Shown: positions 16,501-62,899 of the stretch, one piece after another
How the letters are laid out: each line of letters begins with the position of its first letter
How positions within the stretch are numbered: the stretch's first letter is position 1
DNA from: Agelas oroides
Taxonomy: Eukaryota > Porifera > Demospongiae > Agelasida > Agelasidae
Reading direction: 5' to 3'
Length of the DNA stretch: 64,000 nucleotides
NCBI GenBank assembly: GCA_949130485.1
Contig: OX422197.1
Location: 7,110,991-7,174,990 of the forward strand
The notes under the pieces: generated by a model
Told to the model about the DNA's origin: nothing
Seen by the model: only the letters and a program-made list of their open reading frames with translations
Database searches by the model: none
Translations under genes and position numbers: made by a program

Positions 16501-19500
16501 TCAGTAGAGAACAGTTTCACAATTATATCTGCACATGATCGTGTGGGTCCTGATTTGGTACCCACGTGAGCAGCAATTCAGGGTATAACATATCCATATG
16601 CAGTGAGTGTATGGGGTGTAAAGATTAGGGAGTGGCATTGTTTGTGATTGCTGTGATGTTTCATAATCTTTCACCGAGTCTTATCCCCAGACCAAATTTT
16701 TTTGCATGTGCCCTGTGGCCTTGTTGAAACATAGGGTCTGGGCACTTTCAGTGGGAAATCTGAGGCCTAATTATAAAGTGTATCGGCGTGTTGTCGCTCT
16801 AATCAGATCGCTTGGGGAATTAAATCATGTTTATATGTCATCACAGATAGCCAGCTTGCAGATTTTTGGGTGCCAAGGCTTATGCTACTAGTAACTGGCA
16901 ACTTAATGACCACCTACAATTACTGACTGCTGTATATCAACTGGCCGCAGTTTTCTTAGTGAAAGTGTCCTGCACCCTATTTTTTGATGAGGCTGCATGC
17001 GAAAAATTTGGTCTGAAGACAAGACTAGATTTTCAGCTATCAATTGTTTTGGTTTGCTCTTAAACTACTGTAACTGTAAGGCTAATAATGACTGGCAATT
17101 AATCTCACTTCATGCACCTGCTCAGTGTGGGGTATTGTACTAGCACACTGATGGACATTGAATATTGGTGGAGGTGGGGTGGGGGGGGGGCTATAGCCCT
17201 CTACGCTATGGTAGAGGTGAAAATATCATCGTGGAGTGGGTGTTATGAGGTGTTGTCTTCCCTCACTAGAGCCACTTTGACCTGCGGAAGAAGTTAGACG
17301 AGATGCAAGGGATGGTATGTCAGAGTACAGACATGGTTGTTGGTAGCCACCAGCTAAACTGCACACAGCCATTGTTATTGATGTAATCACATTCTTCACT
17401 GAAGTATGTCAGATGATAGTAGTTACTGGCGTGAGGTGGACATGTGTTGGGGGTGTGTCCTTCATGTTTCCACTCCCCTCTCCTCTACCGCCCCAGTATC
17501 CTTCAGAACGTGAAGCTGTAAAGGAGGACATTACAAAGGTATGTGTGTCCATGTCCGCCTGCAGTGAGGAGCATGTTACATACAGACCTTATGTGAATGA
17601 TGTCACATGCTATATCTCTGGATGTTATGTCATCAGCTGCGGCCATCTTGAGTGGCAAAGAGCAATGATGAACTGTACAGTGTGACCTGTCAGTTGCCTC
17701 TGTTTGTAGAAACACATGAACCTAGCTTTATTGTCACTCTGAATGCACAAGGTGTTAACATGGCCTGCTTCTGACTGAAGCCATTAAGCTTACATACCTG
17801 CATGTTTCCTGAAAGTTATGAACTCACAAACCACACTGCTATACCATTGAAATACTGCATTTTGCCACTCAAAATGGCCACTTAGTACCCACAGTTTCAG
17901 TTTACTGTTCACTGTCCATTCACTAGCAGTAACATAACTGCACGAGGTCTATCTCCCGTTCACTCATGTCTCCCCCCCCACACAGTGGAAGCAGCTCACA
18001 GAGCAGGAGAAGAAGAAGGTAGGTACAATCCTCACATTGTAAAGCTAGCTCCTGGAAACCCCTACCCTTGTACCCAGGCCTTCAACCCAGTGTTTGTCAC
18101 TTGCAGTACTAAAGGTCTGGTATTAATCATCTCATGCGCTGATGTACCTGCATGTTAGGTGGACGTCTGGAGGCATTGCAAAATCCCAGAAAATTCCAAA
18201 CTGGTCTTTTGCCTGGATGTTTACAGCACTGTTGCAATTGCTTAAGGTTTAACTAGCTTGGTACTCAGCTACTGGCCCTGACTGAAAAACAACATTTTAG
18301 GAATGTGCCACGCCTCCAAACATCCACCTGATGTCCAGGTGCGTCACTGCACGTGATGTGTTTTACCGAGCCTTCTCCTGGTTTAGTGCTGCAAGTGGCA
18401 GAAGCTAGGTTGAAGACCTGGGTACAAGGCTGCTGCTGGCAGTGTGTATTGTACAACTATTAGCTGTTGTTGATGTGGTTACAACATGTGCCAACACGTA
18501 GCAATGTAAACAAACATACTTGTTAACTTGTACACCACAAAGGTTTCTTCATATCAGCTTACAGCTTACATTTAAGCACTTCATGCTAACGATGCGACTG
18601 TGCTGTCGGGTGATAGTATGAATTTGTAGCCTCGTTCACAGGCCCTCGTTCACAGGCCTTCCCCGCCTCTACTATTTGATTGGTTCCACTATGCAAATAT
18701 GTACAGTACACAACAAACAATCTTGAGCCCTTGATTGTAATGTCTGTCCAAGGACTGGAAGGCCTGAATGTTCACAACGCAGTGCTAATACAACTCATTG
18801 TTCAGTACACTTGAGACAGATTAACACAAAGTTGGAATTATAACAGTCAGGCACTGCCCACCTTCTGTCTACTGACGTTACATGACATCACCACACATGA
18901 TGAGATCTCCCAGGTTTTCCCCCTCTGTATTAGCATACTAAAAGCAATCAAATACTGGAAGTGGGGAAGGCCTGGGAGCGAGACTAAGGAACTTGTTCAT
19001 ATTGCTAGTAGTTATGTATCTTACATGTGTGTGTCGTCCATTTGCTCGTGCAGTGTGGGAAATGATGAGTATGCATTATATAGTGATGTGTGCTGATAGA
19101 GCTTGAATTTTTGAGGGGCTTGTAAATAGACCTGACCTTCCCATCCATACACCATTTCACCTTGCATGTGTATGCCACAGCAGGGTAAAGCAATTGGTCG
19201 TGCCAGTCAGTCAGAATAGAATTTTCAGCAGTTTTTTTTATGTTGCCAGAAGTCCCTGCACAAACTGTCCTCATACCCAGACGGCAAAATCACCATCTGC
19301 AAGATTGTGTTTACGTACACTAGCTACTACTCGCTATATAGCTATTTTTTTTTGTTTGAAGAGGAAGGTGTGTAGGGTAAGTGCTCTCCTGGGCACTTCT
19401 AGTTGTGTTGTAAGAATAGAATTTTCAGCAGTTTATCGGAAGTCCCTGCATGGACTGTCCTCGTACACAGATGGCAAAATGTTTGTCTGGGTATGAAACT

Positions 19501-22500
19501 GTGAGTGAGTGAAGTGGTAAGACCCAGCCATTTCAGAATGTGTAGACTACTGCTTGCTACTAGCTACGTGTTTAGTAGTTTCAAGAGATGGCTAAATGCT
19601 CTTCTATAGGCAGTAATTATCACAGTGAAAGAACAGTATGTGATGCTTTGTTTGACTCCCACACTGAGATTACAAGCATGCAGGGTAGAATGTAACTCTA
19701 ATGCCCGGCCTCCATTCAAATCAGAGACATCAATGTCAAATCTTGTGTTGGTCCATGTTGCTGGCTGTGAGTGTGCACCTTTTCATAGTAGCTATCATGC
19801 ACCATGCCAGCTAGCCTCGTTAGTTAACGATCATACTGATGGTCCCATGTAGTATTAGGTACCGTTAGTTCACGATCATACTGATGGTCACATGTAGTAT
19901 TAGGTACCGCTAGTTCACGATCGTACTGATGGTCCCATGTAGTATCAGGTACCACTAGTTCTTGATCATACTGATGGTCACAGTATTAGTGTGTTTGTTT
20001 ACTGCTTGCTTACTGTGTGGTGCTGTGTACATGTTTATGGTGTGTACATGTTCCCATGTTCTCTCCATTTGTTAGCTGCTGAGACAAGAGGATAGAGAAG
20101 GAAGAGAACGTGACAGACAGGTATGTGTGTGTGTCAGTGGACGTAGGTTGTCCTTGTGTTCATCAGTGTGAGTGGTGTTGTTAGGCCTGCTGGTTGAGAT
20201 GAACTGTGACCATCCATTACTCTGCTTCACCTGCTGCTCTGTTTCTTGTTCCTCCTCCAGGATGACCAAAGCTATTATTCAGAGGTAAGTACAATCAACA
20301 GTAGTTGATATTAGCTCATATTACATAGTGAGCAAAACTCATACAGTATGTGACTACTATAGATGGCAGATGGTGAGTGTTATGTGAAATTAGGCAGAAG
20401 AGAGTAGAAGCATGCAATGATCACGTAAGCATTCAAACAGCTAAGCACCTGGTGCAGTGTACGTCTAGTCTAAAGATGAACGACCATGTCAGTGCTTCTT
20501 ATGGATGATGCTGATGTATTCAAGACCACTGGGTACTGTGTGTGTGGCAGACATTGGAACATGTGCAGACACATAGTTCTGTGTGTCCATCATAGATAAT
20601 AGAGCACTGAAACAGGATTGGAAACGGACAAAAAATTTACGGGCAAACTCAGGCAAAACGCCAATGACATCACGTTGAATCCTCGTTCCTGTGTTTCAGT
20701 TAGAAGGCGGTGCCCACTAACAGGTGTACGATCGTTTATCTCCCACGCGGGTCATCGAAGTAGAGGTTCTTGTGCATTTACTGATATACCACGGTATCTA
20801 CAACATTCTGGTAGAAAATTGTACTACGCACAGTTGTGAATTGATTTTTATGCAATGTAGAAATGCTAAAATAATAGTTTCGTAGTTTTTTCTGGAAAAT
20901 AAACAGGGCTACCCAATGATGCAAGCTGTCATAAAGTGTAACCATTAACAAAGAATGTAACTGAGTGGCTTATTTCTTTGTGATACAGTACATGGTTTGA
21001 TGGGAGGTCTTGAAAAGTGTAAATAATGTGAAAACTCTTGTAGTTTTCTAGAGAGATCTGTACCCTCGTTTAGGTAAAGTCTGCTGGTCAGTATAGCAGT
21101 ACATAGGTCAATGTAATGCTGACAAAACAATAGAGCTGCAGTAATTGTGTGCACTTTTCTCCAGCTTTCTGAACAGGTGCCTCCAGCTCATGCAGAGGAC
21201 ATATCAATCTGTCTTAGTCGTCTTCAGGCCTGCTGATAATTTTCAGGACTCGTGAATATCCCTCCATCGCAATAGCAGTCTGCCAGAAGCCATTTGACAT
21301 TAGGGGAAAGAAGAAACACACATAACCGCCGCTCTCGCACAGTCGTCTACTGCCAATGCAGTGTGCATCAGATCACGTGACCGAAATGATGATTCGACGT
21401 AAAATTATTGCCGTTTCCAATCCCTGTTCGTAACTCTATTATCTATGGTTCCATTACTTGCTTGTTATGTATGCAGTACCCGGCAGTTGACATCCAGAGT
21501 CCATTTTTATCTGTCTTGCTTCTGGAACTTGTCATGTTTTACTGTCAGACAATTGAACTGCTTCATTACTTCCACTTTGCTGAATGTTGGGACCATTTGA
21601 GCTTTGACCCCAATGTGTGGTTGTTGTGTGTTTCTACTCTCCCTCCACTTCTCTCATCATTGCATGCTCCTGACAGTACATACTGCACAAACTATTTTCA
21701 TTATTTCATAGTGTCAGTAAACATTCAGCATTCTGCCATTTATACTGGTACTTGAGAGGCTTGGTGTTGATTACCGTATAGCGGGTATTTTTCGTGGGGG
21801 TGTATTCTTCGTGTTTTTCTCAGTCGAGTGGGGTCCACGAAAAATTAACCCACGAAAATGTGTGACTCGTATCCCCGTGCGTGTAGTTCTACAGACAGTT
21901 GTGTCCATGAAACACGTCGCTGCTACAATAGCTATCCTGCCAATAATACTGCACAACTCTCCGTTGCGAGCATCTCTGGTATCAACTATAGCTAGCTTGC
22001 TTTGCGCTTGGTGGATGTCAATATCGAATATTTCCTTTCCGCGAAAATTTAACCCGCGAAAAATTTCCATAATACAATAGATCGTGGTTCCGCGAAAATT
22101 TTGCCCTGCGAAAAATACCCGCTATACGGTACTAGAAAGACAGTATAGACACTTATGAACAGTGATGCAAGTGCTGAGAAATAAGTCTAAGGGAAACATC
22201 TGGGATTCGGCTGAGATTTGAACTCAAGACGTTCTGAATACTAGTCTTACCACTAAGCCACTGGGACCCCTGGACAGGGGAGTGGAAGACAAGCTACCTG
22301 TAGCAGCAATGCCTGAGGAGCTCAGCTGAAGTTTGGTTGATTCACACTCTCCCTCAAGTATTTAGTATTCAGAAGGTCTTGGGTTGAAATCCCACCTGGA
22401 TCCCAGATATTTTCTGTGGGTTTCTTTCTCACTCTCTCAGCACTTCCATCACTATACTAGCACTCTTTGAAGTTGCCTAGTAGCTACCCCTCTCCCTACT

Positions 22501-25500
22501 TCATGTGTCAGTACAGCTCTCCCCACATCCTTGGTTTGAGACAGTCCTTCATGTGCCACGCCTCCTGCATGTACTGACACCACTGCATGTTATTGGTAGG
22601 GGGTGGGGCATGGTTGCAGGGTGGGGGGAGACAGCATACAGTGTACTACCACAGCTGGGTCAGTCTCCATTGTGAAGGCTAAGCATGTAGATTTACAGTA
22701 GGTGTGGTCTAGGTAGTTGCATGCTAGGTAGAAACACCACTAACAAGTAGCCTCGTTCCCAGGCCACTCCCCCCTCCAGTGTTTGATGGCTTGCAGTGTT
22801 TTGTTTACGTGTTAGGAGAGCCTGTGGAGGAGGCTAACTAACAAGAGTGCTTCCTTCTTCATGTGCACTGATCATCCATCAGTCAATATATAATGAATTG
22901 AAAAGTGCATAACCACACCCACCTTAGTGAGGTGGATGTTAACGACCCTGCACATTGGTGTAGTGTGAATTAAGATCATGAAGTGGGTATTGAGTATGGT
23001 GTACTACATTTAATGTAACAGCCATAAATTTTTAGCAGGAATCTGAAGTTAGTTTTCAGCAGCAATTTGATTTTCTGCAGGTGGCTAGTCGAACCTTTTA
23101 GTTTCAGTTTCGTACTTCATATAGTGTCCAATTGCTTTCATTATCACAAAAGGACGTACAGTCTTTCCACTGTCTAGTACCAGTGGTACTAGTGCTGGTA
23201 CTGACTGACTCGGACACAAATGTTCGTTGGCCTCTTCTGTAGCTCACTGTAGCCTCACTGCTGGTAAAGTAGAGGACTTCTTGAGGTATCTTGTGGCAGC
23301 TGTAGTTCTGTTTAACATTACCTCTTTAGAAAATGTTTTACAACTGGCAAAACTCAATGCATACAACCTGGCTGTGATTGATATGAATCATGAATTTGCT
23401 GACCTTTGAACCAGCAGTCATTCATGTAGACTCACATAACATTCTACACATAAATTTCTGGCTTTAGGGTACGACGTGCTTGGCAGCTTAAGTGCCTTTG
23501 TAGTTTATATCGACTAGAGGATGATACAACTTTTGTTCCAGTATTCATTCATGTAGACTCTTACATTCTACACATAAATTTGTGACTTTAGAGTGTGACT
23601 TATTAGACAGTTTGGTGGACCCTTGTCTGTAGTGTATGAATAGACAATTGACAATGGGATACAAGTACTGTTCCTTGTATATTCTATTTAATGCTGACCG
23701 TGCTGTTTGTTTGTGTACTTGAACTGTATCTAAGTTTAGTAATGAAGTTATCTCTCCTCATCTTCTGTGGCCCTCCCTGTACTTGAGCTACCCTCTCTCC
23801 TCCTCTAGCTGCCATGTTTATTTGAGTCAAGAGACACACGTCTGACCAGACAATTACAAACTGTGTTTTATAAATGTGGTAGCAAAGCACTTTGACCTTT
23901 CCCTCAGTCTCATACCCGGACTACCTAGTCTGGGTAGGAGACTAACCTTCCCATGGGCCATGTAGCTGTTAGATGCAAGTGTAGTGATACTAGGAACAGT
24001 AATCCTTGATAGAGTCTCCTCAGTATCTCACATTGTGGTAGGTATAGAGCAAGATGATCATGTAGTAAACAGTATATCGATCATCATGTTGCAAACAATG
24101 TGTGTCCCACTTGTGACCTAATCCTGCCTTCATCTCCCCTCCAGAAGATACAGTACTTGTCACAGGTATGTACTGTACGTGTGTGTTCCTCTTGTGTACT
24201 AATCAGTAGCAGTGTCCATGGTAACCAACCACAAGAGTGTGGCTAATGTCATGGTACAATATTGTGGCCCATTGTTCTAGTGAATGTATCATTATGAGCC
24301 TTAGCATGTGTAGCTAATTGACAGGGACTTCCCCATCATTGAATACCATAATGTATCATGACACATGCAATGATATGGGAAGGGGTCTAGCTGTGCATGA
24401 CTTACTGGATCAGTACCTCTCTAGCAATGGCACATAATAGACATTCAGTACACAGAAGTGAAGGAGTAGAGTGTTTGGATTGATATTTCCCACCGTACAC
24501 CTGTGGAATGTGATATTGGTAGTTTTGTATGGCTGTGTAGTTGTGGGACTAGAAATGGTGTGTGATATTCATTTCACTTTCATTGCCCACCTCCTCCTCT
24601 CCCTCTCCATTACCTTCCACTGTAGGCGAAGGAAGAGGCCAAGCAACAGCAAAGGGAGCTGGAGGAGGTAAGCCAAGATTGTGTGTCAACAATGGTGTGC
24701 TGGGCTGTACCCCACTTACACCTAGTTGGTAATTTTATGTGTTCCGAAAACAATCAAAGTTAGTGTTTGTGAGAGTTTTGTGGTTTAATTTTTATGGTCA
24801 TGGAATTATTCTACACAACTCGAAAAATCTGACTTTCCACACTTTGCCAGTCCTGGATAGAAACTGAATATTATTCTGTTGCATATTTCAAGCTCATCAC
24901 TGAGTTTGAACCACTGTATTGTTGAATTTCCATTGAGGGTGGGGCTCATCGTAGGTGTATGAATATCTGATGTGTCTGTGAGGTTCATATGAGCCCCGCC
25001 CCTAGTGGAAGTCCTGCAATACAGCTCATTGAAGGTGGTGATGTACTCAAAATACACAATGTACTAATATTTGAGAGGACTGCCACATTTATGGTAGCTC
25101 AGTGCATAGTCTTGTGAAGCCACGTGTGTGAGCTATAGTCTTGTGAAGCCAGGCTAGGCACATGTGTGAGAGTCTGGCTTTGTGAGACTTCTCAATGTCA
25201 GTACAGTAGCTTTCACTGTATGAGAGGGTGGAGACAGAGGTACACCTGTGGTGGTGGACTGTATGAGAGGGTAGAGACAGAAGTACACCTGTGGTGGTGG
25301 ACTGTATGAGAGGGTAGAGACAGAGGTACACCTGTGGTGGTGGACTGTGTGAGAGGGTAGAGACAGAGGTACACCTGTGGTGGTGGATACCTGTTGTAGG
25401 AGAGGTGCTCGTGTGTACCAGAGAGCCTGGAAACCATGGCAATCCCTTATGGTGTTGTTGTATCAAGGTATACTGCTGTGATTGTCAGGGCCTTACCAAG

Positions 25501-31500: not shown

Positions 31501-32522
31501 ACCCACACCACCCCCCCACCCTTCTTTTTCTCTTCCCCATGTTTCTTTCCCGTTCTCTCCTCCCTTTCTTTTCCCATCCGGCCACCCCCCTCCCCTTTCC
31601 CTTCCCTCTCCCTTTACCCGTTTCCTCTCCACTCCATCCTCTTCCCCCTTTCCCTTCACATCCTCATTCACCCCTTCCTCACCCCCCCCCACACACACAC
31701 ACACACACTTCTCCCCTTCCACCCTTCCCTTTCAAACAGTAACACTTAAATTTGCTGCAATACCATTACTTTTTTGACAACCACCATGATATAATGATTA
31801 GCCGCAGCATTTTTTCCTCAGGCAACCTTCAGTAATTTCAATGATGGTTTTCCAATCAGTTTCGGTAGCAAATCCCCTCTTTCCACAGCATGCTGACCAT
31901 TCAGACAATGGGTTAAAATGGTCTAGAGGATAATTATAGTCCCTGCCTTCTAAATGGAATGCTGTTCAGAGCCAATTATTGCTGAATGCTTACATTGAAA
32001 AGCAGTGACACACGGGGCTAGTGTGTACAAGTGTGACCCACTGTCAACTTTAGTGTTTGGTGACATTGTGAGGGGGTGGGATGTGTGTGGACGTACATGT
32101 ATTACATGATTCAATGTATGTGTTTATGGAAGTGTGCCACCTAAAGAAAATGAGAAGTGACCAAATTTGACATTGAGCTTTAGGTTAATGGGAGGTTTCA
32201 CACAGTTGAGTGTCCTCGCACTGGAGTATGGTGTAACTTCGTAGCAGAAGTGTCCCAGTGTGAGTATAGACCCTGCATTCCTGTATTGGTATCAAGCTTG
32301 TGTGGAGGGATACATGTCAGAGGTGCTCTTTGTTCTCTCTACAGGAGAAGGCATCACTTCAGCAGGAGGTAACAGGCCATCTCAGTCACACGGAATTGGA
32401 GGCAAAGTTGAGTGAGACGGAGAGGGCGATTATGAGGGCTAAAAAGCAGCAAGAAGAGTACCAGGAGATTATAGACAAGTACAAGCAAAGACTCCAGAAT
32501 ACATCTCAAGAGCAAGATAAAG
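13532..32522 (+). CDS. Gene A exons 1-10: basic N-terminus and micro-exon coiled coil
   Basis: Exon 1 starts at an ATG with A at -3 and ends [14 protein letters not shown]. Exons 2-9 are 33, 45, 42, 33, 45, 24, 21 and 42 nt, all phase 0, so any can be skipped or repeated without a frame change. They encode [81 protein letters not shown] and [14 protein letters not shown]. Exon 10 (178 nt) continues with charged helix ([16 protein letters not shown], then [16 protein letters not shown]) and ends in phase 1. The 21-nt exon is exactly one heptad. Introns 5, 7, 9 and 10 are large (2.1, 3.9, 7.7 and 7.9 kb). Confidence 0.85.
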
Positions 32523-38500: not shown

Positions 38501-41500
38501 TTCCTCCAACAGCAGCATTGCGTCGTGTCACTTTTCATGATCAGACCACCAGCACTTTGAATCAGGCCACTACTACACTACTACCTTACTGAATGATTTG
38601 ATGAATCAAACTTGCCATTGCACAGAACCAAAGTGTCTGAAGAATCCAGAATCTCACTAGCTCAAACTCTGATTGACAGCAGAGGCCAGCCTCAGTTGTA
38701 CGACCTCCATCCCATCTTCGTCTGCTGCACAACTAGCATTGTCCTTGTCTAGCAAATTTGTGACCACCTCAAGAATGCCCCACAGTGAATATTATGAGAA
38801 GGGCAAACTCTGTGGCATAACCCCTTACAAACCTGGTGAGCTTGACTCACACGATGCAGTCACATCCAAGAGAAGGCAATCGCACACACAGGTCATACAC
38901 ATACATCACCTTTTCACTCCAGAAAGTATTCTAGCCTAGCTGTCACAACAAGCTTGCTACAACTGTAAACTGCTCTAGCTTTTCATCAAGCTGAGCAAGA
39001 GAAAGGTGGCCAGAATATCAACTATACCACTGAATCAGCTGAGAACTTCACTACTGGTACCGGACTTCTCTGAGTGCACAAGCGGACTACAGAGCATGTT
39101 CTTCTTGCTATGAATGTTTAACTCAGATTATCAGTCTGCGAGTCATAGGGAGCTTCCTTTCACATAATTAGTTCCTATCCCAATTGAGATGCTTACATAA
39201 CAACAGTAAGAACATTTCCCTTCAAATGGAAATTAATGTGTACCATGAGATGAAAATCTTATAAGTGTGTACTTTAGATTGCCATATTTGTACAGGGGTT
39301 AATGAAGTATAGAGCTTGCCTAGCCGAGTGGTGTTTCTATTTCCTTGCGTGACATGTTAGCGAGCTATGATTTCTTACCCTGAGAATCTAGAGGCATCAG
39401 TTGGGGTGCCAAGTGTGTACATTTATAGCTTGGGAAACAACTGTGAGAAGCATGCCCATAATTTTTGTGCTCTCTCTTGTACACTCCTTCAGCTATGACA
39501 TCAATTTACTACTAACATCTAGCTGGCTTTTATATGTCTCCTTGTTTGTACTCATGCAGCACTTTTCTTCTTGCAATTCAACCCTGACTTTTAAGTTGAG
39601 CTCCTGTTGTGACACAGCTGCTTCTCTTGATCCCAACCAGTTTACCTAATATGATCTAGTAACAGTGTAGTACCAGATGATCTTGGCACACAAGTACTAT
39701 ACTTCCTCACTGTTGTACTGCAGGGACAGTTTAGTGGGAGGCAGTCTGTCATCAAACATAAGATCAGAAGTAGTATATGAGGCACTTGACTTCAACTCAT
39801 CTTTCAACTAATACACAATACTCAACTCTTTAGCTCCATTCACCACTGCTTCCCTTATTGTGTCTCTCTCCTTTACCCTGTGCATTGTGCATTGCCTTTG
39901 CTTTATTGAGTTCTCCTGGTCTGGGTGTGCCATGACTGGAACATTCACATTATGTTTATGATTGGAGCAGGAGCTTATGAACCATTTGTGGTGCTCATAA
40001 GGTCCTGGTTGGAGTGATACACAAATGTGTACAGATAATTGGGCAGATATCCACAACTGGAACCTCTCGCTTGATCCTGTAGCTGGTTCTGCTCATGTAT
40101 ATAAAACCATTTCATACAAGGGTACTGAAGAGTGTACCACCTGCACTCTCATCCTAGTGTAGGCTGACAGTGTATGGTAGGGGCTCCCCATAAGTTGAAC
40201 TTCTTTTCAGTGTGCCAGTCATCCAAATGTGACTTTCTGTTACATACTTATTCATGGTCTCTCCTCTGACTGTAAGGAAACAATTGTTGGTGTTCATTAA
40301 TTATTATACAACCCACTGTGTGGATGTTAAGTGTGGTACCCTGTCATTATAGAAACTGGATACTTGTTCTCCCACAGAATCCAAACGGTTTTTGGAAGAA
40401 GCCCTACGAAAGGGAACCATTCTCGCCCGAATAAACAAGTGCATCCTTACCGGCTCAGCGGGAACCGGCAAAACACACGTCATGCACCTACTGCTGGGAC
40501 TGAAGCCACCAATCGTTCGCTGCAGCACACCGTGTGCTAAGGCTCCCATCCGTGTTGTAAGCACGATAAGAATCAAGTGCGAAGATGAAGGGTGGGTGGT
40601 GGTAGACATAAAAGAGCTAGAAAACATACTAGCTAGTGTTATCCCAGTTCTTTGGGACGCTCTTCCTGAAGATGAGAAAGTTCAAGCTCAATCGTTCGAG
40701 TCTCTATTCCAACAGCAGCAATCAAGTGGTGTTACCCACGATAAGGCTACACCCACTTCCCAAGATCAGGCTACACCCACTTCCCAGGATTCACCATCAT
40801 CCACCTCCCAGGATCAGACAACCAGCTCAATTTCAGATGCTCCAAAGCAGGCCACTACAAGCTTACTGGATGATCTGGTGAAGCGAATTACTCAACTTGC
40901 CATGCACAGCACCAAAGAGTCAGACGAATCCAAAGATTTTAGCAATGCAAACTGGATTCACCTGATTGACAGCGGTGGCCAGCCACAATTCTATGACCTC
41001 TTTCCCATCTTCATCCGCCATGCCACTAGCATTCTTCTTGTCCAGCGACTTTGTGACCGTCTTAACGACCGTCCCACAGTGGAATACTATGATGGGGATG
41101 GTGCACTGGTTGGCATACCCTATCTCTCCCTCTTCACGAACCTGGAGACAGTGATGTGCTTGGCTCGCACAATGCACTCACATCCAACAGAAGGCAAGCA
41201 TCCAAAGATCATGGTAGCTTGCACACACCGGGATATGGAGGGAAAATGTTCTGAAACACGAGCCGAGAAGAACAAGACACTCTTCAATCTCCTCCATCCT
41301 CTCTTTCCCGATGACCTAGTACTCTATGGAGATGCACTGGAGCCCATTTTCCCTCTGAATGCAAAAGAACCAGATGAAGAAGACAAGAGAGTTGCCAAGC
41401 TTCTCAGGCAAGCAATCGAGAGCTCTGCCCCTGATCCAGTGGAAATCCCACTTTGGTGGTACTTCCTGGAGATAGGACTTGCAAGACTAGCGGCTATGCT

Positions 41501-43343
41501 AGGCAGAAGGGTTCTGAGTCGAAAGGAATGTCTCAGTGTAGCCCACAACTTGAGGTTCCCTGAGGAGGAGTTCCGTGCTGCGTTGCAGTATTTCGATAAA
41601 CTCAACCTCTGCCTTTACTATCCCACTGTGCTTCCAGACGTGGTGTTCAGTGACCCGCAAGTGCCACTGGACAAGGCTTCCGAACTAGTGCAGCAAAGCT
41701 ACAAGCTTAGGGAAGGTAAACAAGGTAAGAAGTCTCAGGGTCCACAAGAAGCTTTAGAAGCCAAGTGGCTCAAGTTTCGCGATCAAGGTATTGTTCGCTC
41801 TGAGTTTCTTGAGAAGTTTCCCAAGCACTATAGAGATAGGCTGTTTACTCCAAATGATCTTCTCCTTCTTTTTGAACACCTTCTGATTCTTGCTCCCCTC
41901 ACAAAGGGTGACTATTTCATGCCATCACTTTTGCAGATTATTCCCACTGAGGAACTTAACAAACACGACATTTCTTCTCCAGCAGCAGCTCCACTTCTCA
42001 TCCACTTCTCTCACGGTTGGCCTCGCAATGGAATTTTCTGTTGTCTAGTGGTGTACCTGATCAACCACTGCCAGTGGCAGGTCGTACTTCCTGGCAAAGG
42101 ATCTCCCATTCTCACTGCCAGGAACTGTGTCAAGTTCAGGCTACCAAACCATCCTTGTACAGTTACATTAATAGACTCTTTCACTCACTTCGAAGTTTAT
42201 GTCAAAAGCTCATTCTTTTGTGAGATCTGCACCAAGGTTTGTCCCAGCATTCGGAACTCCATATTTAATGGGATTGATGCAGCTTCTATTACACTTCAAT
42301 ACAATAATGCAAAGCCATCCCCAGCTCTTCTTTGCCACCACTCTGACAGTGACAATGGTCAGACCAGCAGCAATACCACCACCCTTCCACCACATGCAGC
42401 CACTATCACAAATGACCATGAGTACTGGCTATGTACCGTGGACGCCGATGTTAGTGGAAAGCTGACTGAGATGGAGAAAGTTTGGCTCCAACCAGAGGTA
42501 GCCTTAGCAGGTAATGACCATAGCACAGTTTGTTAGTTCCCTTGCGAGAGGTTCAGATTTGTTTTTTGGCCTATGTTCCATTCTCATTAAATCCTCACAT
42601 TTCCTAGGTGATGAAATGATTGCCTTTGAGCCTGAACAACATCATTCCTCCACACAAGTCTCCCAACACGAAGGTAAGGCAGCTATAATGTGTATAGCTA
42701 TTTGAATGTTAATTTTTACTAAGGCAGCAGGGTCAATTTCGGAATACAGTATATTTTGTGCATGGCTAATCCTTCCCACATTGCTATAAGGGATGGGAGA
42801 AGGTCTAGCCTTGGGTATGAGGCTAGTCCCACTATTAACTGGTTCCCATCTGTAGGTGCAGTATCAACTCCACAGAGAAGACTCTGTTCCCCACTTCCCC
42901 CCACCTCTCCAACCTCCAAAGTTGATACACTTGGTAAGTGTTCAGTGTATGCAAACTTGATTATGTACAAACAACTAAGTAAATTGTCATATTTCATTTT
43001 TCCATCAAAGTGATAGTGATTAATAACTCCACATTTCCACTCTTTACCTCTAGCTGAGAAGGACTTGGTTGACATAACAGACTACCTACTAGACATGGAG
43101 AAGGAGCACATCTATAATCTTGGACTGGTCCTGGGGCTTCGACACAGCAAACTTAAAACAATGATGGACTCAGCTACTTTCTATGGTGATGTTATTGCTG
43201 CATGGCTACGAAAAGAGGACCAAGTTTCAGAGAAGGGGGAGCCAAGCTGGACAGTTCTCGTTGATGCACTGAAACATCGTAGAGTTGGACAAACAGGAAT
43301 TGCCAACAGCATAGCAAAAGACCATTTAGGAGAACTTGACTAG
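13532..43343 (+). CDS. Coiled-coil / Roc-COR-like GTPase / Death-domain protein (gene A), complete
   Basis: 14 exons: 13532-13669, 15220-15252, 17270-17314, 17497-17538, 17986-18018, 20076-20120, 20261-20284, 24145-24165, 24626-24667, 32345-32522, 40378-42510, 42608-42673, 42856-42933, 43054-43343. All are GT-AG with matching phase and total 3,168 nt (1,055 residues). The order is: basic N-terminus (1-46), charged coiled coil (47-200), P-loop GTPase (about 201-550), COR-like winged-helix and following region (about 555-900), Ser/Pro-rich hinge, and a Death domain (about 960-1055). No signal peptide or membrane segment is seen. The layout resembles Roco-like and NLR-like signalling proteins of sponges and cnidarians, in which a Death domain recruits adaptors. 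Function in innate immunity or cell death is inferred. It is head to head with HACE1. Confidence 0.88.
14013..14127. mobile_element. 115-bp MITE with 9-bp target duplication (intron 1 of gene A)
   Basis: Starts TAGTCTTGCAAACCAGAC and ends GTCTGGCTTGCAAGACTA, with long inverted ends. It is flanked by identical gcacaggca at 14004-14012 and 14128-14136. Confidence 0.92.
14472..14547. mobile_element. Short foldback element with TAGCCTCG ends
   Basis: Starts tagcctcgctcccag and ends gcctgggaacaaggcta. No target duplication is recognisable. Confidence 0.65.
16161..16483. mobile_element. 323-bp MITE, present in copy A and absent from copy B
   Basis: Starts TAGTCTCGTGCC and ends GGGGACGAGACTA. Subterminal inverted segments include ACGGTCTGGTGAA and GTCGAATTTCTTGGGC. 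Flanked by gataggttg at 16152-16160 and 16484-16492. The paralogous site near 60472-60485 has a single copy of this sequence (gctaggttg) and no insert. Confidence 0.93.
16675..17027. mobile_element. Foldback element with about 80-bp inverted ends
   Basis: The left end (cttatccccagaccaaat) and right end (atttggtctgaagacaag) are inverted copies. The paired inner parts agttttcttagtgaaagtgt and gcactttcagtgggaaat follow. A related copy lies at 48443-48680. Confidence 0.75.
18627..18986. mobile_element. 360-bp MITE shared by both paralogue copies
   Basis: Starts tagcctcgttcacaggcc and ends ggcctgggagcgagacta. The flanks atgaatttg and aggaacttg agree at 7 of 9 bases. It is also present at 63467-63821, so it predates the duplication. 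Confidence 0.8.
19816..19990. repeat. About 58-bp tandem repeat, 3 copies
   Basis: Repeats of gatcatactgatggtcacatg, tagtattaggtaccg and tagttcacgatc in gene A intron 5. Confidence 0.85.
20608..21431. mobile_element. About 820-bp foldback element in gene A intron 7
   Basis: Left end aacaggattggaaacgg; right end ccgtttccaatccctgtt, with inverted homology of about 33 bp reaching cgtaaaatt. No transposase frame is seen. Confidence 0.75.
21772..22131. mobile_element. 360-bp foldback element with TACCGTATAGCGGG ends
   Basis: Starts taccgtatagcgggtatttt; ends in the inverted copy aaaatacccgctatacggta. Inside are several further copies of the motif cgcgaaaatttaacc in both directions. Non-coding. 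Confidence 0.85.
22195..22445. mobile_element. tRNA-derived SINE fragments in inverted arrangement
   Basis: On the minus strand, 22270-22200 carries an A-box-like TGGCTTAGTGG and a B-box-like GAGTTCAAATC about 35 nt apart, as in pol III tRNA promoters. On the plus strand, 22370-22415 repeats the B-box part (gggttgaaatcc). It lacks a good acceptor stem, so it is a SINE rather than a functional tRNA. Confidence 0.65.
22748..22836. mobile_element. 89-bp MITE with 9-bp target duplication
   Basis: Starts tagcctcgttcccaggcc and ends gcctgtggaggaggcta. Flanked by identical actaacaag at 22739-22747 and 22837-22845. Confidence 0.88.
22846..24144 (+). other. Rest of gene A intron 7
   Basis: No coding similarity or clear repeat family seen. 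Two related passages near 23420-23460 and 23545-23585 (attcatgtagactc, acattctacacataaattt) form a loose duplication. Confidence 0.4.
24826..25085. mobile_element. Foldback element, copy 1 (gene A intron 9)
   Basis: Its centre has gtggggctcat facing atgagccccgcc. Outer inverted parts include agtcctggatagaaa on the left and the related aggactgcc on the right. It is homologous to 25985-26240. Confidence 0.65.
25213..25392. repeat. 43-bp tandem repeat, 4 copies
   Basis: Units of actgtatgagagggtagaga, cagaggtacacctg and tggtggtgg. The open frame on the minus strand comes from the repeat and is not a gene. Confidence 0.88.
25985..26240. mobile_element. Foldback element, copy 2 (gene A intron 9)
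   Basis: Same organisation as 24826-25085: gggcggggctcat faces atgagccccgcc, with ttctatccaggactgcc on the right side. Confidence 0.65.
26395..26692. mobile_element. Foldback element with a short TTAGGG run inside
   Basis: Left catgttgcagttacgtcatc and right gatgacgtaaccacaacatg are inverted copies. Inside, near 26535-26560, are three ggttag-type units. Confidence 0.7.
28790..29470. repeat. (CCCT)n tract of about 680 bp in gene A intron 9
   Basis: Almost pure CCCT with CCCC interruptions on the plus (sense) strand. Long open frames on both strands are caused by the repeat. Confidence 0.95.
29540..29727. repeat. CA-rich microsatellite in gene A intron 9
   Basis: Interrupted (CA)n on the sense strand, directly after the CCCT tract and about 70 bp of unique sequence. 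Confidence 0.93.
29780..31735. repeat. C/T-rich compound repeat, about 2 kb
   Basis: CCCCCACTCCTTCCT-type pyrimidine units alternate with a conserved spacer (gagtagctcaga, then aaggycattga and attcctgag). The spacer is seen at about 30048, 30856 and 31147, so this is a large degenerate tandem array. A MITE at 30471-30782 interrupts it. Within gene A intron 9. Confidence 0.85.
30471..30782. mobile_element. 312-bp MITE with 9-bp target duplication, inserted in the C/T array
   Basis: Starts TAGTCTCGTGCCCAGGCC and ends GGGGTCTGGGCATGAGATTA. Flanked by identical cccactcct at 30462-30470 and 30783-30791. A related degraded copy lies at about 45980-46285. Confidence 0.9.
32600..32735. repeat. Short degenerate tandem repeat
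   Basis: Repeats of gttactctaatc, aaaccgaga and atttccaataatg in gene A intron 10. Confidence 0.75.
32744..32986. mobile_element. Foldback element in gene A intron 10
   Basis: Left caagagcacataagaacggg faces right cccgttcttatgcactcttg. About 240 bp, no coding capacity. Confidence 0.75.
34680..35060. repeat. About 34-bp tandem repeat, roughly 11 copies
   Basis: Units of tcacatggttagtgtgctgt, tgatatggtgtggtg with tgatatgg/attcacg variants, in gene A intron 10. Confidence 0.88.
35630..36060. repeat. Degenerate tandem repeat of about 60 bp
   Basis: Recurring cacaatccagagg, tctcatggaaagt, ccatagactt and cttcacaga blocks across the segment in gene A intron 10. Confidence 0.75.
36426..36590 (+). 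mobile_element. tRNA-like element inside inverted flanks
   Basis: A-box TAGCTGAGTGG (from about 36475) and B-box GGTTCAACTCC (about 36519) have tRNA spacing, but the acceptor stem pairs poorly. The left flank ends agaggattgtgagggttggt. The right flank cctctgttttcgtctcataa is the inverted form of a flank (ttatgaggcgaaaatagagg) seen upstream of a related, decayed copy at 28158-28245. Confidence 0.65.
37287..37335. repeat. 12-bp tandem repeat
   Basis: Four units of cttggggttatt. Confidence 0.9.
38535..38940 (+). pseudogene. Decayed partial copy of gene A exon 11
   Basis: Colinear with about 40810-41200. Shared stretches include gatcagac-accagc, gccactac, ttactg-atgatttg-tgaa, the G3 region (ctgattgacagc and ggccagcc), cccatcttcgtc against cccatcttcatc, and tgtgaccacctcaagaatgccccacagtg against the region after the GTPase helix. 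It has frameshifts and substitutions and no splice sites. It lies in intron 10, about 2 kb upstream of the intact exon, on the same strand. A separate related pair of segments flanks it at 37500-37660 and 38998-39115. Confidence 0.8.
39116..40377 (+). other. End of gene A intron 10
   Basis: No recognised gene. A minus-strand open frame at 39808-40056 (82 codons) looks less repetitive than most in this window, but I cannot assign it to a family. The acceptor cccacag precedes exon 11. Confidence 0.35.
40378..42510 (+). CDS. Gene A exon 11: GTPase and COR-like domains in one exon
   Basis: This 2,133-nt exon encodes the catalytic core. Walker A/G1 is GSAGTGKT at residues 226-233. G3 is DSGGQPQF at about 398, with the Roc/G-alpha-like GGQ. 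G4 is THRD at 483-486, as in Roco proteins, in place of NKxD. A low-complexity insert of repeated TPTSQDQ-type units sits between G1 and G3. From about 555, [28 protein letters not shown] and [14 protein letters not shown] match the COR winged-helix pattern, and the segment ends near [20 protein letters not shown]. Reading through the donor at 42511 would add only NDHSTVC and a stop at 42536, giving a form without the Death domain. Confidence 0.88.
42608..43343 (+). CDS. Gene A exons 12-14: Ser/Pro hinge and Death domain
   Basis: Exons 12 (66 nt) and 13 (78 nt) both start and end in phase 1 and encode a Ser/Thr/Pro/Gln-rich hinge. Exon 14 (43054-43343) encodes a Death-fold domain: [20 protein letters not shown], then [20 protein letters not shown] and [20 protein letters not shown], with the WxxLxxAL core typical of Death domains. 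It ends at TAG 43341-43343. Matching phases mean the hinge exons could be skipped without a frame change. Confidence 0.87.
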
Positions 43344-57478: not shown

Positions 57479-57513
57479 CTGGGGTTGGTTGGGTCTGGCT
57501 TGCGAGACTACCC
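57479..57513. mobile_element. Orphan MITE right end adjoining the satellite
   Basis: ggggttggttgggt and ctggcttgcgagacta match the right end of the element at 14013-14127. No left end is seen beside the array. Confidence 0.75.
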
Positions 57514-57745: not shown

Positions 57746-60700
57746 ATGGCGTCGGGAGGTGGAACTGGAGACAAAAGTGCACCTCCTCTCCCCGACCATG
57801 CTGAAGCTGATCCGAAAGGAGCTGACCCTAAGAAGCCCGTGAAACTTTCTGATTTTAAGTCAGTATTGGTAAGTGTCCGTAGCAGTATAATACTAAGCTG
57901 CCCCAAGGATTGTCATCAAGCAGACTGTTTAGTCCCGCAAGCCATACCCATGCACTTCTTCTCTAGGTAGTAGGTAGGATGGCAGTGATGCATGCACGTA
58001 CATATACTAGCCTCACAAGCCACACCCTCACACAAATGCTGGGGAAGGGGGGTGGAGGGTGTTAGTCTCGCAAGCCAGACCCACTTCCACAAAAAGAGGG
58101 AAGGGTCTGGTGAACTGCGTATACAAGCCATGTCCCACTGGAATGCTATTAGCTGGATGATGTATCAGAGATTTTCAAATAATGCACTCTTGAATTAATA
58201 CCTGTTGCGGAGTAAGCACGCTCCCTGAGAAGTATAGTCAAAGTGTTTTTACAGCTTCTGCAGTAGCGGAAAAGATGTCCTAGCTCTCTTTCGCCGTTTT
58301 CAAGACTGCTATTGCTACTCAAACAGTGATGTAATTCGTCATGTGACAAAATACTGCAACATGATTGGACCACACTGTACAGTGTGGCGAGACACGGCTT
58401 GTTTGCGCAGTTCACCAGACCCTTCCCTCTTTTTGTGGAAGTGGGTCTGGGTTGCAAGGCTAGGAAGGTGTGTGGGTGTGACCTGCAAGACCATGCATGT
58501 GGACACACTGTTGAACTGCACCTCCAGCAAGGGATAGTCACATCTTACCTGCAGAGGTAGGATCAAAATGAAATCAGACAATCAACATACACTTTAAGAG
58601 CTTCCAAGGAATAATGACTGCCACTGACTCATGCCCAGTGCGTGAGACTTACACCCAATGTGTAGGTCTGTAGTCTCATGGGCCAGACTCTCCCCATGTG
58701 AGAGTCTGGCCCATGAGAGCAGATCATGACAGATCAACAAGACCGTGACAGATCAACCAAATCAACAACATTATTTTTCTTAGATACTGCAGGAGTGTGG
58801 CTACTATTTTGTCATTTTAACCACTGAAAGAGTGACTATTGCCAATCAAGATGCTTGATTCTGGTTTCAAACACTTCTATAGGCAAGATGAAAGTCACTA
58901 CCTGTCCTGCAGTGTGGCTGTCCTAAAACTAGACTGGTCATCAGGTCTCCTTGTCCTAGTGGAGTTGATCCCTCATCATACTAGTGTCCTACAGTGTGGC
59001 TGTCCTGTAACCGTCAAGTCTTCCCTAGTGGAGCATGACTCTTTGCACTTGTTGTATGATGAGGCATTGACGGACTCTTGTAGCCCACACCCGGGATAAA
59101 TCAGGAGTGCCATTTATGGTGGCTAGGACAGAATCTGTTTTACCCTCAGGAAACCACAGTATTACTTAACAAAAGAAGGAAGGGCGTGTTGAAGGAGAGG
59201 GTTATTTAGAGAGTAACATAAGGATGGAGAGTAGACAAGGAAGTACTTGTTATCATTGTCACATGACATAGATGACATTCCATTGTGTCATGCACAATGA
59301 TATTCATGGAGCTAGCTGACCTATAACTGCTGCATGTATGTGTGAGTCAGATTGCTGGTCCAGTGGACCACCCTCCCAGTGACACACACACCCACTGCCT
59401 GGGGAGGACAAACTGTAGCTCAGTCAGCCTTCTCTTCTGACAGACTCTACTAGTCTCTAGCGAATATGTTGGATCATGTGGTTCATGGCGTCCTCTGATA
59501 TACTACATATGGTTGAATAACATGTTGTGTAGAGTGGACTCATGTTTATATTGCTCACTGCCTCTCTCCCCTCACTGATTACCCCAGAGTCTCTCTACAG
59601 TGGACAGGTGGAGCAAGCTGGTAAGTTTCTGACCACTCAGTGTTGTAATTATCCTGGTGTAGGAACACTTTTGTCCCCATCATAAATGATCACCATCACA
59701 AATGGCCACACAGTGCCAGTGATGCTGGTGGCAGGAATGTGGGTACAAGTTAGCCTCATTCCCAGGCCACTCCCACCCCAGCTTTTGATCACTTACAGTA
59801 TGGGGGAAAGGCCTGGAAGAGTTTCACATGTGATATATACTGATGTCACAGAATCTGTAGAAACCTTTCCAACCTGCTACAATGAAGCTAAAGAAACTAG
59901 ACAAGCTCCAGACAAGAGGGAGGACCTACCTCTAAAACATACCAAAACAAAACTGCTAAGGCACAGATATGATAAAAGGCTTACAAGTTAGTAAAGTGCT
60001 TGTATGTTCTGCCCAGTGAGCCCATCACACTTGGATGTTTCAGCACTTGTATCTCAGCACCCTTCAAAGGTAGGGCTTATACTTGTGATAGGTTTTATTC
60101 ACTCAGTGCAGCTCCCAGCTGGCTGTTGTACCATCTTTGTAGCTGCAACAGAAAGTGAGATACAGCTCAATGGCCTCCGATATTTTGAACAGCTGACATT
60201 TTGTGATGAGGGTGGTATGCATCTTCTTTGTATCCTCCTCACCAAGAGAATATCTCTGTTTGGACAGTTGAAGCTACGAGAGTGTGTCGTACCTCGTGTT
60301 ATGAAATGACAGAACAAAACACAACAGGAAGCCTCACCCTAACTTCTGGCTATTGTCAAGTTCTTTTCTTCTTCCCACTTGATGTTGCACTACAAGTGAA
60401 AACCCTTCCAACCCTCCTCCTCTCCCATACTGCAAACCATCAAAAGAGATGGGCGTGGCCTGCATGATAACGAGGCTAGGTTGAAGTGTAGTCAGTAGAG
60501 AACAGTTTCACAATTATATCTGCACATGATCATGTGGGTCCTGATTTGGTACCCTCGTGATCAGCAATTCAGGGTATAACATATCCATATGCAGTGAGTG
60601 TATTGGGTGTAAAGGTTAGGGATTGGCATTGTTTGTGATTGCTGTGATGTTTCATAATCTTTCACCATGGTTATCATTAGCCTTGTTCCCAGGCCTCCCC

Positions 60701-62899
60701 CATTTTGCTGTGATGTTTCATAATCTTTCACCTGGTTATTGTAGTACTAGGATTAACGTAAACTGGAAAAATTTTGGTATTAAATGTTTTGTAGGCCTGT
60801 GCAGCAACAAAAGTTAAACTCATGAAGACTTTCATGAAAAAAATTCAGCCTGAATATGAGCCTCATAGCCAGCCCTTCAGATTCACTTATAGCACTAACA
60901 TGTGGTAGCTATAAGTGCTGGTAGCAATAAACACTGGGGTAGAATACCTTAGTAACGAACTAGGCTACAGTGAGAGTGTAGTGCGTTCATTTCACAATGT
61001 TGATTCACAGCGGTGTCCAAAGGGTCATTGACTATCTACTCTTTTCCGTGCATGCCTGTGGTAAAGCCGTAAGCTTGAATGACACTCAATCTAATAATTT
61101 CATCTGTAAAATATGTCCTTAACATTCATTTGACATGCTTTTAACATAAATTTTCAACTTAAATATTCTTTGATTTACAAATACTGAGATATCGTTGAAT
61201 AAAGACCTGGTTATCATTAGTTTGTTCCCAGGCCTCCCCCGTTTTTGTACCTTCTGTTTGAGTTTACAAAAATACACGGAAATGGAAAAGTGGAGAAGGC
61301 CTGGGATCATTCATCACGTTAGTGAATGCAAGGTGTACGTAGGGTGAAGAAGCTGATATTCAGATGTATACGTACTAAGCTGTTCCTTATCAGTCGAGAC
61401 AAGTTGGTTTGACCGCATGAATGTCTGGAGTCCTGATCAGGAGTGGAGTGCTGCGAATGAACAATTTAGTGCATTGTTTGAGATTGCCCCCCACTCCCCT
61501 ACGTCCATCTTGCATCCACCTGACATCACTCACTGACGTTTTCCTTTTTTCACCACTCTTCTGCTTACATGGATCTGTGTATTACTGTGAACACAAACGG
61601 AAGAGTAAATAACAGGGCTGTCCTAGGAATGAGGCTAGGTGATTGTAGCACTGAGGTTATTGTTGGACAATGATCTGAGGTGCGGGCAAATTTACTTGGG
61701 GAGGGGCTGACATTATGGAGGGTGTGAAGGTGTTGATCATCAGTGTGAAGTACAGGAAACATTTCAGCATGATTTGAGCTATCATATCATGAAGCACTCT
61801 TGGTGTGTTATAGTGTTTTTGGTCTGCTCTTAGCTACTGTCACTGTAAGACCAAGATAATAGCCAACCTCATCTTACACACCAGCTGAGTGTGGGATATT
61901 TATACTAGCACATTGATGGACATTGTAAATATTGGAGGGAGCTACTGTCACTGTAAGACCAAGATAATAGCCAACCTCATCTTACACACCAGCTGAGTGT
62001 GGGATATTTATACTAGCACATTGATGGTCATTGTAAATATTGGAGGGAGCTATGGCCCTCTATGCTGTGATACAGGTGAAAATATTATCTACTGTACATG
62101 TGAGGAGTGGGTGTTATGAGGGTGTTATCATTGTCTGTCTCCCCTCACTGATTCTCACAGAATGCCTCCGACGTTGAGAAGGAGTTCCAGGACTGGGTAT
62201 GTCAGAGTACAGACATGGTTGTTGGTAGCCACCAGCTAAACTGCACACAGCCATTGTTATTGTTGTAATCACATTCCTCACTGAAGTATGTCAGATGATT
62301 GTAGTCACTGGCATGAGGTGGACATGTGTTGGGGGTGTGTCCTTCATGTTTCCACTCCCCTCTCCTCTACTGCCCCAGGATCCTTCAAAACGTGAAGCTG
62401 CAAAGCAGGACATTACAAAGGTATGTGAGTCCATGTCAGCCTGCAGTGAGGAGCATGTTACATACAGACCTTATGTGAATGATGTCACGTGCTATATCTC
62501 TGGATGTTATGTCATCAGCTGCGGCCATCTTGAGTGGCAAAGAGCAACGGTGAACTGTACAGTGTGACCTGTCGGTTGCCTCTGTTTGCAGGAACACATG
62601 AACCTAGCTTTATTGTCACTATGAATGTACAAGGTGTCAACATGGCCTGCTTCTGACTGAAGCCATTAAGTTTACGTACCTACAAGTTTCCTGAAAGTTG
62701 AGAACTCACAAGCCACACTGTTATACCATTGAAATACTGCACATGCCACTCAAAATTGCCACTTAGTATCCACAGCTTCAGTTTACTGTTCACTGTCCAT
62801 TCACTAGCAGTAACATAACTGCATGAGGTCTATCTCCTGTTCACTCCTGTCTCCCCCCACACACAGTGGAAGCAGCTCACAGAGCAGGAGAAGAAGAAG
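57746..62899 (+). CDS. Paralogue of the coiled-coil GTPase gene (gene B), first five exons (partial)
   Basis: Exons 57746-57868, 59588-59620, 62161-62196, 62379-62420 and 62867-62899, all phase 0, give 89 residues before the window ends. Exon 1 (ATG with A at -3) ends KKPVKLSDFKSVL, matching KKPTKLSDF of gene A. Exons 2-5 encode SLSTVDRWSKL, NASDVEKEFQDW, DPSKREAAKQDITK and [11 protein letters not shown]. Exon 5 is identical to gene A; exon 3 is three codons shorter and barely alignable. Splice sites and introns closely match gene A. The GTPase and Death parts would lie beyond the right edge, so it is unknown whether this copy is intact. Confidence 0.85.
58063..58462. mobile_element. 400-bp MITE with near-perfect 9-bp target duplication (intron 1 of gene B)
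   Basis: Starts tagtctcgcaagccagaccc and ends gggtctgggttgcaaggcta, with inverted arms over 50 bp including cacaaaaagagggaagg. Flanks ggagggtgt and ggaaggtgt agree at 8 of 9 bases. Confidence 0.88.
58671..58719. mobile_element. Small hairpin element
   Basis: tagtctcatgggccagactc faces gagtctggcccatgaga. Confidence 0.7.
61832..62047. repeat. About 107-bp tandem duplication in gene B intron 2
   Basis: Two near-identical copies from agctactgtcactgtaagac to ggagggagct. Copy A of the segmental duplication has one. Confidence 0.9.

What the first reader, a model, noticed from the sequence alone, without database searches (positions are those of the whole stretch)
59588..62420. Coiled-coil exons diverge far faster than the introns around them
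Between genes A and B, introns flanking exons 2-4 differ by about 2-4% (5 in about 215 bp after exon 2; 6 in 182 bp of intron 3; 7 in about 170 bp of intron 4). Exon 2 differs at 8 of 33 bases and exon 4 at 4 of 42. Together they have seven amino-acid replacements and two silent changes, including E to R, E to K and E to Q. Exon 3 is 15 against 12 codons and barely aligns. Exon 5 is identical. Charge reversals in a coiled coil change pairing partners. This pattern fits diversifying selection, or exon replacement, on an oligomerisation code that keeps paralogues of a Death-domain GTPase apart. Conserved introns also argue against simple relaxed decay.
Basis: partly seen in the sequence, partly recalled or inferred. 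Interest (0 to 1): 0.88.

Follow-up and report, generated by a model that had tools for sequence, protein, structure and literature searches.

The report
Hypervariable micro-exons in ROCO-Death gene array
In a probable sponge genome, neighbouring copies of a ROCO-type GTPase gene have very similar introns, but several of their tiny exons differ sharply at the same few codons in each copy, as expected if each copy is under pressure to recognise something different.

Summary
A and B belong to a tandem family on contig C15: six copies with Roc-COR exons plus a truncated seventh.

Over the six copies, exons 2, 4 and 8 (96 nt) carry at least 48 changes; neutral simulation on the intron tree gives mean 14 and maximum 31 in 20,000 runs. 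Forty-four lie in codons whose amino acid varies (7.7 replacement changes expected), four are silent (2.0 expected). Exon 2 codons 1 and 4 show six residues in six copies; exon 3 has four lengths; exon 5 is identical. A second clade (Q1-Q3) varies at exactly the same exon 2 codons, 1, 4 and 7. In A, P2 and P3 the Roc-COR exon is constrained (dN/dS 0.25-0.36), which argues against relaxed decay.

Best reading: diversifying selection on a micro-exon-encoded module upstream of Roc-COR, probably for recognition. A coiled-coil pairing code is possible but weakly supported. Closest precedent: brown-algal LRR-ROCO genes with one-exon repeats under diversifying selection (PMC11378527). Expression, exon 1, splicing, ligands and allelic variation are untested.

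The parts
15220..15252 (+). gene A exon 2 ([11 protein letters not shown]), hypervariable at codons 1, 4, 7
17270..17314 (+). gene A exon 3 ([15 protein letters not shown]), differs in length and sequence among copies
17497..17538 (+). gene A exon 4 ([14 protein letters not shown]), most variable at codons 1 and 4
17986..18018 (+). gene A exon 5 ([11 protein letters not shown]), identical in six copies
20076..20120 (+). gene A exon 6 ([31 protein letters not shown])
20261..20284 (+). gene A exon 7 ([17 protein letters not shown]), flanks 0/100 differences
24145..24165 (+). gene A exon 8 (KIQYLSQ), hypervariable at codons 1, 4, 5 in six copies
24626..24667 (+). gene A exon 9 ([29 protein letters not shown]), flanks 0/100 differences
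32345..32522 (+). gene A long helical, probably coiled-coil exon (59 codons plus 1 nt)
   Evidence: coiled coil by inspection
40378..42510 (+). gene A Roc-COR exon (splice sites by inspection; open frame 40353-42536)
43054..43343 (+). gene A C-terminal Death-like exon
   Evidence: no Pfam Death match for A itself
59588..59620 (+). gene B exon 2 (SLSTVDRWSKL)
62161..62196 (+). gene B exon 3 (NASDVEKEFQDW)
62379..62420 (+). gene B exon 4 (DPSKREAAKQDITK)
62867..62899 (+). gene B exon 5 ([11 protein letters not shown])

Best explanation
A and B are members of a tandem family of ROCO-type GTPase genes with Death-like C-terminal exons. The region upstream of the Roc-COR exon is a chain of phase-0 micro-exons (21-54 nt), at least two of them duplicates of one unit. 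Shown: in six copies and again in a separate clade, particular codons of these exons (1, 4, 7 of exon 2; 1 and 4 of exon 4; 1, 4, 5 of exon 8, the last read in the six copies only) have changed at several times the rate of introns, while scaffold residues and exon 5 stay fixed; in A, P2 and P3 the Roc-COR exon is constrained and its silent divergence matches the introns. Inferred: these codons encode contact residues of a recognition module, each paralogue is selected to bind something different (microbial, non-self, or a diversifying partner), and binding is passed through Roc-COR to the Death-like domain. Also inferred: 3n exons can be skipped without frame loss, so splicing may add variants.
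For: Six-copy excess over intron windows and over neutral simulation; 44 changes in residue-varying codons against 7.7 expected, 4 silent against 2.0; same codons 1, 4, 7 vary in Q1-Q3 exon 2 (chance 1/165); Q1/Q2 exons 2+3+4 18/105 against introns 88/1385, P 2e-4; A, P2, P3: exons 12.5-18.8% against introns 2.9-4.2% and Roc-COR dS 2.7-6.5%, dN/dS 0.25-0.36; exons 6-9 27/132 against flanks 5/400; Roc-COR fold. Precedent: brown-algal ROCO exon repeats under diversifying selection (PMC11378527).
Against: No transcript, exon 1, ligand or allelic data. Conventional dN/dS inside so few codons is weak: dN exceeds dS in 2 of 15 pairs for exon 2, 8 of 15 for exons 2+4, 14 of 15 for exons 2+4+8; codon models gain 2.2 and 3.5 lnL units over the runs written with omega 1.0. 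With the neutral tree stretched 4-fold the total change is matched (P 0.64). Only 4 of 19 A/B divergence spikes are micro-exons. Death assignment is sub-threshold, and no Death-like exon was found in the 1.5 kb held after P3's Roc-COR exon. The array statistics rest on six related copies with mosaic homogenisation, and exons 6-9 were found by a scan that required 3n length.
Confidence: 0.6

Rival explanations
1. Self-association code: the module forms helices whose variable residues decide which paralogues may pair, so that copies stay apart.
For: Charged, helix-like micro-exons and a long helical exon precede a Roc-COR domain, a dimerising type (recalled and in PMC11378527 passages); E/K/R swaps at exon 2 codon 7; helical-face clustering P 0.037 for exon 7 and 0.013 for Q exon 4.
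Against: Clustering not significant in the other 5 of 7 sets; exon 3 length steps of three residues would shift the register; codon 1 and 4 residues are not core-like.
Confidence: 0.18
2. Evasion arms race: the module is a target that a pathogen or parasite binds, and variation escapes binding rather than recognises.
For: Would give the same codon-specific replacement excess.
Against: Gives no special reason for retaining six divergent tandem copies with intact Roc-COR frames, though it does not exclude it.
Confidence: 0.1
3. Exon-targeted mutation or replacement from donor copies, without selection on residues.
For: Abrupt contrast at splice sites, 0/100 flank differences at exons 7, 8 and 9; A's exon 3 lies beside a divergent tract and exon 3 changes length; all four silent changes lie in exon 2.
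Against: 44 of 48 changes fall in residue-varying codons; no stop codon in the frame; exon 5 unchanged; no donor copies listed in searches with flanks. Flank identity may reflect splicing signals.
Confidence: 0.07
4. Relaxed decay of redundant or dead copies.
For: P5 is truncated and a decayed relic exists at C15:6069 kb.
Against: Exons exceed introns; Roc-COR frames of the six copies are open over 718-819 aa and constrained in the A/P2/P3 trio.
Confidence: 0.02

Closest known systems
Brown-algal LRR-ROCO genes (Teng et al. 2024, PMC11378527; abstract, outline and 12 of 20 passages seen; Zambounis et al. 2012 not held, known through that paper)
   Same: ROCO scaffold; N-terminal units encoded one per exon in constant phase; a few positions per unit under positive selection; proposed immune receptors with alternative splicing.
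   Different: Their units are 72-bp phase-2 LRR exons, with no other domain combination reported; here the exons are 21-54 nt, phase 0, not recognisably LRR, and a Death-like domain follows Roc-COR.
DAPK1, MFHAS1, LRRK1/2 (animal ROCO proteins; full architectures recalled)
   Same: Roc-COR fold (LRRK1, LRRK2 and bacterial or archaeal Roco structures are the 12 PDB matches with E<=0.001); DAPK1 has a C-terminal Death domain (recalled).
   Different: No kinase, ankyrin or LRR part was recognised in the exons read here; a micro-exon chain takes that place.
Schistosome micro-exon genes (PMC4350168 abstract and section list; PMC10526429 start of abstract in a listing)
   Same: Many very short exons, rapid paralogue evolution.
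   Different: MEGs encode secreted proteins; here a Roc-COR signalling protein, secretion signal not examined because exon 1 is unknown.
Aphid bicycle genes (PMC9168663, 12 of 20 passages)
   Same: Many micro-exons in one phase, strong positive selection.
   Different: Phase 2, gall effectors; no ROCO domain.
Fungal NLR/HET repeats (PMC4986451, 12 of 17 passages)
   Same: Few positions per repeat under positive selection on one surface, with concerted evolution.
   Different: WD/ANK/TPR repeats on NOD-like receptors, not micro-exons on ROCO.

Membership tests
ROCO (Roc-COR) proteins | Roc-COR tandem fold | tested here: met
   AF2 model (pLDDT 78.8, 30 sequences); all 12 PDB matches with E<=0.001 are Roc-COR proteins
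ROCO (Roc-COR) proteins | Pfam Roc/COR score above cut-off | tested here: not met
   Roc 13.0 bits, cut-off 27; 7 of 120 listed homologues carry PF16095. The fold match is taken as stronger.
ROCO (Roc-COR) proteins | P-loop GxxxxGK[ST] | tested here: met
   GSAGTGKT in the 40353-42536 frame, by inspection; the pattern is recalled
ROCO (Roc-COR) proteins | GTPase activity and dimerisation | not testable with these tools
   none
Death-domain proteins | C-terminal Death domain | tested here: inconclusive
   A: no Pfam Death match, 30% identity over 74 columns to P0105's Death region, E 8e-5; P2 exon 96% identical to A; P4 fragment Death 20.3 bits, cut-off 22.6; B and P1 weak partial matches, P3 none convincing
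Brown-algal-type exon-repeat ROCO | Repeat units one per exon in constant phase under codon-specific selection | tested here: met
   Phase-0 micro-exons; exon 3 of the array and exon 2 of the Q clade are homologous with flanks; exons 6-9 were sought as 3n
Brown-algal-type exon-repeat ROCO | Units are 72-bp LRR exons | tested here: not met
   Exons of 21-54 nt without an LRR pattern by inspection
Schistosome-type micro-exon genes | Chain of short 3n exons | tested here: met
   Exons 2-9
Schistosome-type micro-exon genes | Secreted product and alternative splicing | not testable with these tools
   exon 1 not found; no transcripts

The most novel reading that the evidence does not exclude
An animal ROCO-Death family has built, independently of brown algae, a germline-diversified intracellular recognition repertoire in which phase-0 micro-exons are the recognition units, a few codons per exon are the specificity code, and splicing of different micro-exon sets multiplies the variants, so that ROCO proteins would stand beside NLRs as a receptor scaffold in early animals.
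Probability: 0.28. Interest if true: 0.92.

Novelty: new variant of a known kind. Interest (0 to 1): 0.8.

Why it matters
If right, an animal without antibodies diversifies a signalling GTPase at fixed codons of micro-exons, a close parallel of the brown-algal ROCO system in another kingdom. It makes the question of how such animals obtain recognition diversity testable, because the variable codons, the conserved scaffold and the paralogue set are now listed. It is also a clean case in which introns and silent sites of the same genes give the neutral clock and single codons show the selection.

Tried and rejected
Relaxed decay: rejected.

Other reading frames: rejected by inspection. Frame 1 has stops in exon 4 (A, P2, P3, P4), exon 6 and exon 8 (P1, P3); frame 2 has a stop in A's exon 6; frame 0 is open in every copy read (sequences).

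Continuous coiled coil through exons 2-4: disfavoured by exon 3 length steps and weak face clustering. Whole-exon replacement for exons 2, 4 and 8: disfavoured.

Named full-length homologue: not found. Protein searches listed 120 of 215 and 62 proteins; the named ones are two Halichondria panicea proteins (37% and 30% identity). The first, P0113, is at most 47% identical to any listed stretch of this genome, so the genome is probably not that species. A search of solved structures by sequence gave nothing.

Exon 1 and promoter: not found. B and truncated P5 share sequence up to window 58163, A's homology stops at 14883. A Death-family search of the genome listed 150 matches, none in the array; only 150 of 870 candidates were scored. 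A weak extra micro-exon candidate at 27236-27265 (6/30, flanks 4/100) is not counted.

Literature: searches, of which I saw only the listed titles and abstract starts (2-10 per search), showed no report of hypervariable micro-exons in animal ROCO genes. The library holds only CC0, CC BY and CC BY-SA papers. PMC12909245 (five passages) is about sponge NLRs and has no hit for 'Roco'.
Full report
SETTING. The window is C15:7110991-7174990 of a 259-Mb genome in 141 contigs. One hundred and fifty Death-domain matches over the family cut-off (the number scored) and named protein relatives only in Halichondria panicea make a sponge likely; that is an inference. Searches of the genome place genes A (window 14884) and B (window 59249) in a C15 family with P1 (6.779 Mb), P2 (6.827), P3 (6.876), P4 (6.921) and P5 (6.962; its match ends in intron 2). 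Roc-COR exons are listed for P1-P4, A and B. Three older relatives, Q1 (C15:7.480 Mb), Q2 (C15:7.689 Mb, minus) and Q3 (C10:6.195 Mb, minus), share the exon layout where read.

OBSERVATION. Six copies remove the confounding. Exon 2 reads GLSDVDEWSKL (P1), DLSAVDKWSKL (P2), NLSLVDKWSKL (P3), RLSSVDKWSKL (P4), [11 protein letters not shown] (A), SLSTVDRWSKL (B), and SLSLVDEWSKL in truncated P5, which is left out of the statistics. Exon 3 has 18, 18, 9, 15, 15 and 12 codons in P1, P2, P3, P4, A, B. Exon 4 varies most at codons 1 and 4; P1 and P2 have one extra first codon, left out of counts. Exon 5 is identical in the six.

SIGNIFICANCE. Exon 2 has at least 18 changes in 33 columns; 1398 intron windows of that width have mean 3.3 and maximum 12. 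Exon 4 has 15 in 42; 1362 windows have mean 4.2 and maximum 13. For exons 2+4+8, neutral evolution on the intron tree gives mean 14.2 and maximum 31 in 20,000 runs against 48 observed. Stretching the tree 3-fold nearly matches the total (P 0.06) and 4-fold matches it (P 0.64), so the overall rate is about four times neutral; five codons with five or more residues were not reached in 4,000 runs even at 5-fold (maximum 4). Forty-four changes fall in codons whose residue varies (7.7 replacement changes expected from the intron rate), four are silent (2.0 expected, P 0.15). Changes by codon position are 21, 18 and 9. Against this, conventional dN/dS is weak on so few codons: dN exceeds dS in 2 of 15 pairs for exon 2, 8 of 15 for exons 2+4 and 14 of 15 for exons 2+4+8. 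Codon models with free omega gain 2.2 (MG) and 3.5 (GY) lnL units over runs written with omega 1.0, a notation I took to fix omega.

TWO NEUTRAL CLOCKS. For A, P2 and P3, introns differ by 2.9-4.2% and Roc-COR silent sites by 2.7-6.5%, while exons 2+4+8 differ by 12.5-18.8% (Fisher P 5e-5, 5e-7 and 1e-7). Roc-COR dN/dS in this trio is 0.25-0.36. In the other pairs Roc-COR dS runs from 0.24 (P1/P4) to 0.86 although pooled introns 1-4 are 3-7% apart, so the array is a mosaic.

REPLICATION. Exon 2 of Q1, Q2 and Q3 reads YASTLEQWSKP, RASALERWSKP and WASALEEWSKP: differences only at codons 1, 4 and 7, the array's three (chance 1/165). Exon 4 reads DPSERAQAEEEIRR, FPSNRARAEENIRR and DPSQRARVEENIRR, varying at 1, 4, 7, 8 and 11; four of these five vary in the array too (P 0.13, not significant). 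Q1/Q2 differ at 5/33, 6/30, 7/42 and 2/33 in exons 2-5 against 88/1385 in introns (exons 2-4 P 2e-4).

MORE MICRO-EXONS. A scan of A against B for open 3n segments between shared splice signals found exons 6-9: 7/45, 6/24, 8/21 and 6/42 differences with flanks 5/100, 0/100, 0/100 and 0/100. Exon 8, read afterwards in P1-P4, gives codon 1 V W L R K W, codon 4 D A R D Y E and codon 5 L Y Y W L D over P1, P2, P3, P4, A, B. Exons 6 and 7 of P2 differ from both A and B. Controls: contrast at 6 AG..GT 3n loci (exons 2 and 6-9 and the weak candidate at 27236), 3 non-3n loci all overlapping these, 0 minus-strand-like loci, 2 decoy loci, one overlapping exon 2 and one the weak candidate. An unbiased scan gave 19 spikes, 4 of them micro-exons; the other 15 were not studied. 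The long helical exon differs at 28/178, about as much as its flanks (21/129 and 11/137), so it is not an outlier. Exon 3 of the array and exon 2 of the Q clade share exon and flanks.

PROTEIN. The model read from A is micro-exons, a 59-codon helical exon, Roc-COR and a Death-like exon; joins are by inspection and exon 1 is unknown. All 12 PDB matches of the Roc-COR model with E<=0.001 are ROCO proteins, though Pfam scores stay below cut-off. The Death assignment is sub-threshold: no Pfam match for A, 20.3 bits against 22.6 for a P4 fragment, 30% identity of A to a homologue's Death region, a 96%-identical exon in P2, weak matches in B and P1, none convincing in P3.

INTERPRETATION. Recurrent replacement at fixed codons in a conserved scaffold, in a tandem family with a switch domain and a probable death-fold output, is the pattern of a receptor family. 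The nearest precedent is the brown-algal LRR-ROCO genes: one repeat per exon, constant phase, four repeat positions under positive selection on the concave face, proposed immune receptors (PMC11378527, abstract and 12 of 20 passages). Fungal NLR repeats (PMC4986451, passages), schistosome MEGs (PMC4350168, abstract) and aphid bicycle genes (PMC9168663, passages) share parts of it. The pairing code remains possible but is not favoured. I hold the selection claim at about 0.9 and the whole explanation, recognition included, at 0.6.

Noticed in passing
16161-16483: Insert of about 323 bp in A's intron 2, absent from the other copies, with 28 other places listed at 95-99% identity: a young dispersed repeat.
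   Followed up: no
about 16690-17269: A-specific divergent tract in intron 2 up to exon 3 (22-26% different from the other five copies in the last 197 aligned bases), suggesting replacement or conversion from an unknown source.
   Followed up: partly
40378-42510 and the other Roc-COR exons: Mosaic family: A/P2/P3 Roc-COR dS 0.03-0.07, P1/P4 0.24, other pairs 0.71-0.86, although the 5' introns of all six are 3-7% apart.
   Followed up: partly
L047 (C15:6068970-6069230): Decayed relic of exon 2 with the reading frame lost.
   Followed up: yes
L042, C15:6962386-6963704 (P5): Truncated copy keeping exon 2 and part of intron 2, with upstream homology to B back to window 58163.
   Followed up: partly
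C15:6924322-6924574 (P4 intron 5): Insert of about 254 bp whose start looks tRNA-like, possibly a SINE, absent from the other five copies (by eye).
   Followed up: no
about 52978-57480: Satellite-like tandem array with a step of about 113 bp upstream of gene B.
   Followed up: no
L038, about 741-1811 (just right of the window): 45-bp tandem repeat expanded in B's intron 5 relative to A 19818-19989.
   Followed up: no
4568-7232: Minisatellite giving the same repetitive peptide in several frames.
   Followed up: no
8238-10507, minus strand: Open frames of 353 and 272 aa, apparently part of another gene upstream of A; not identified.
   Followed up: no
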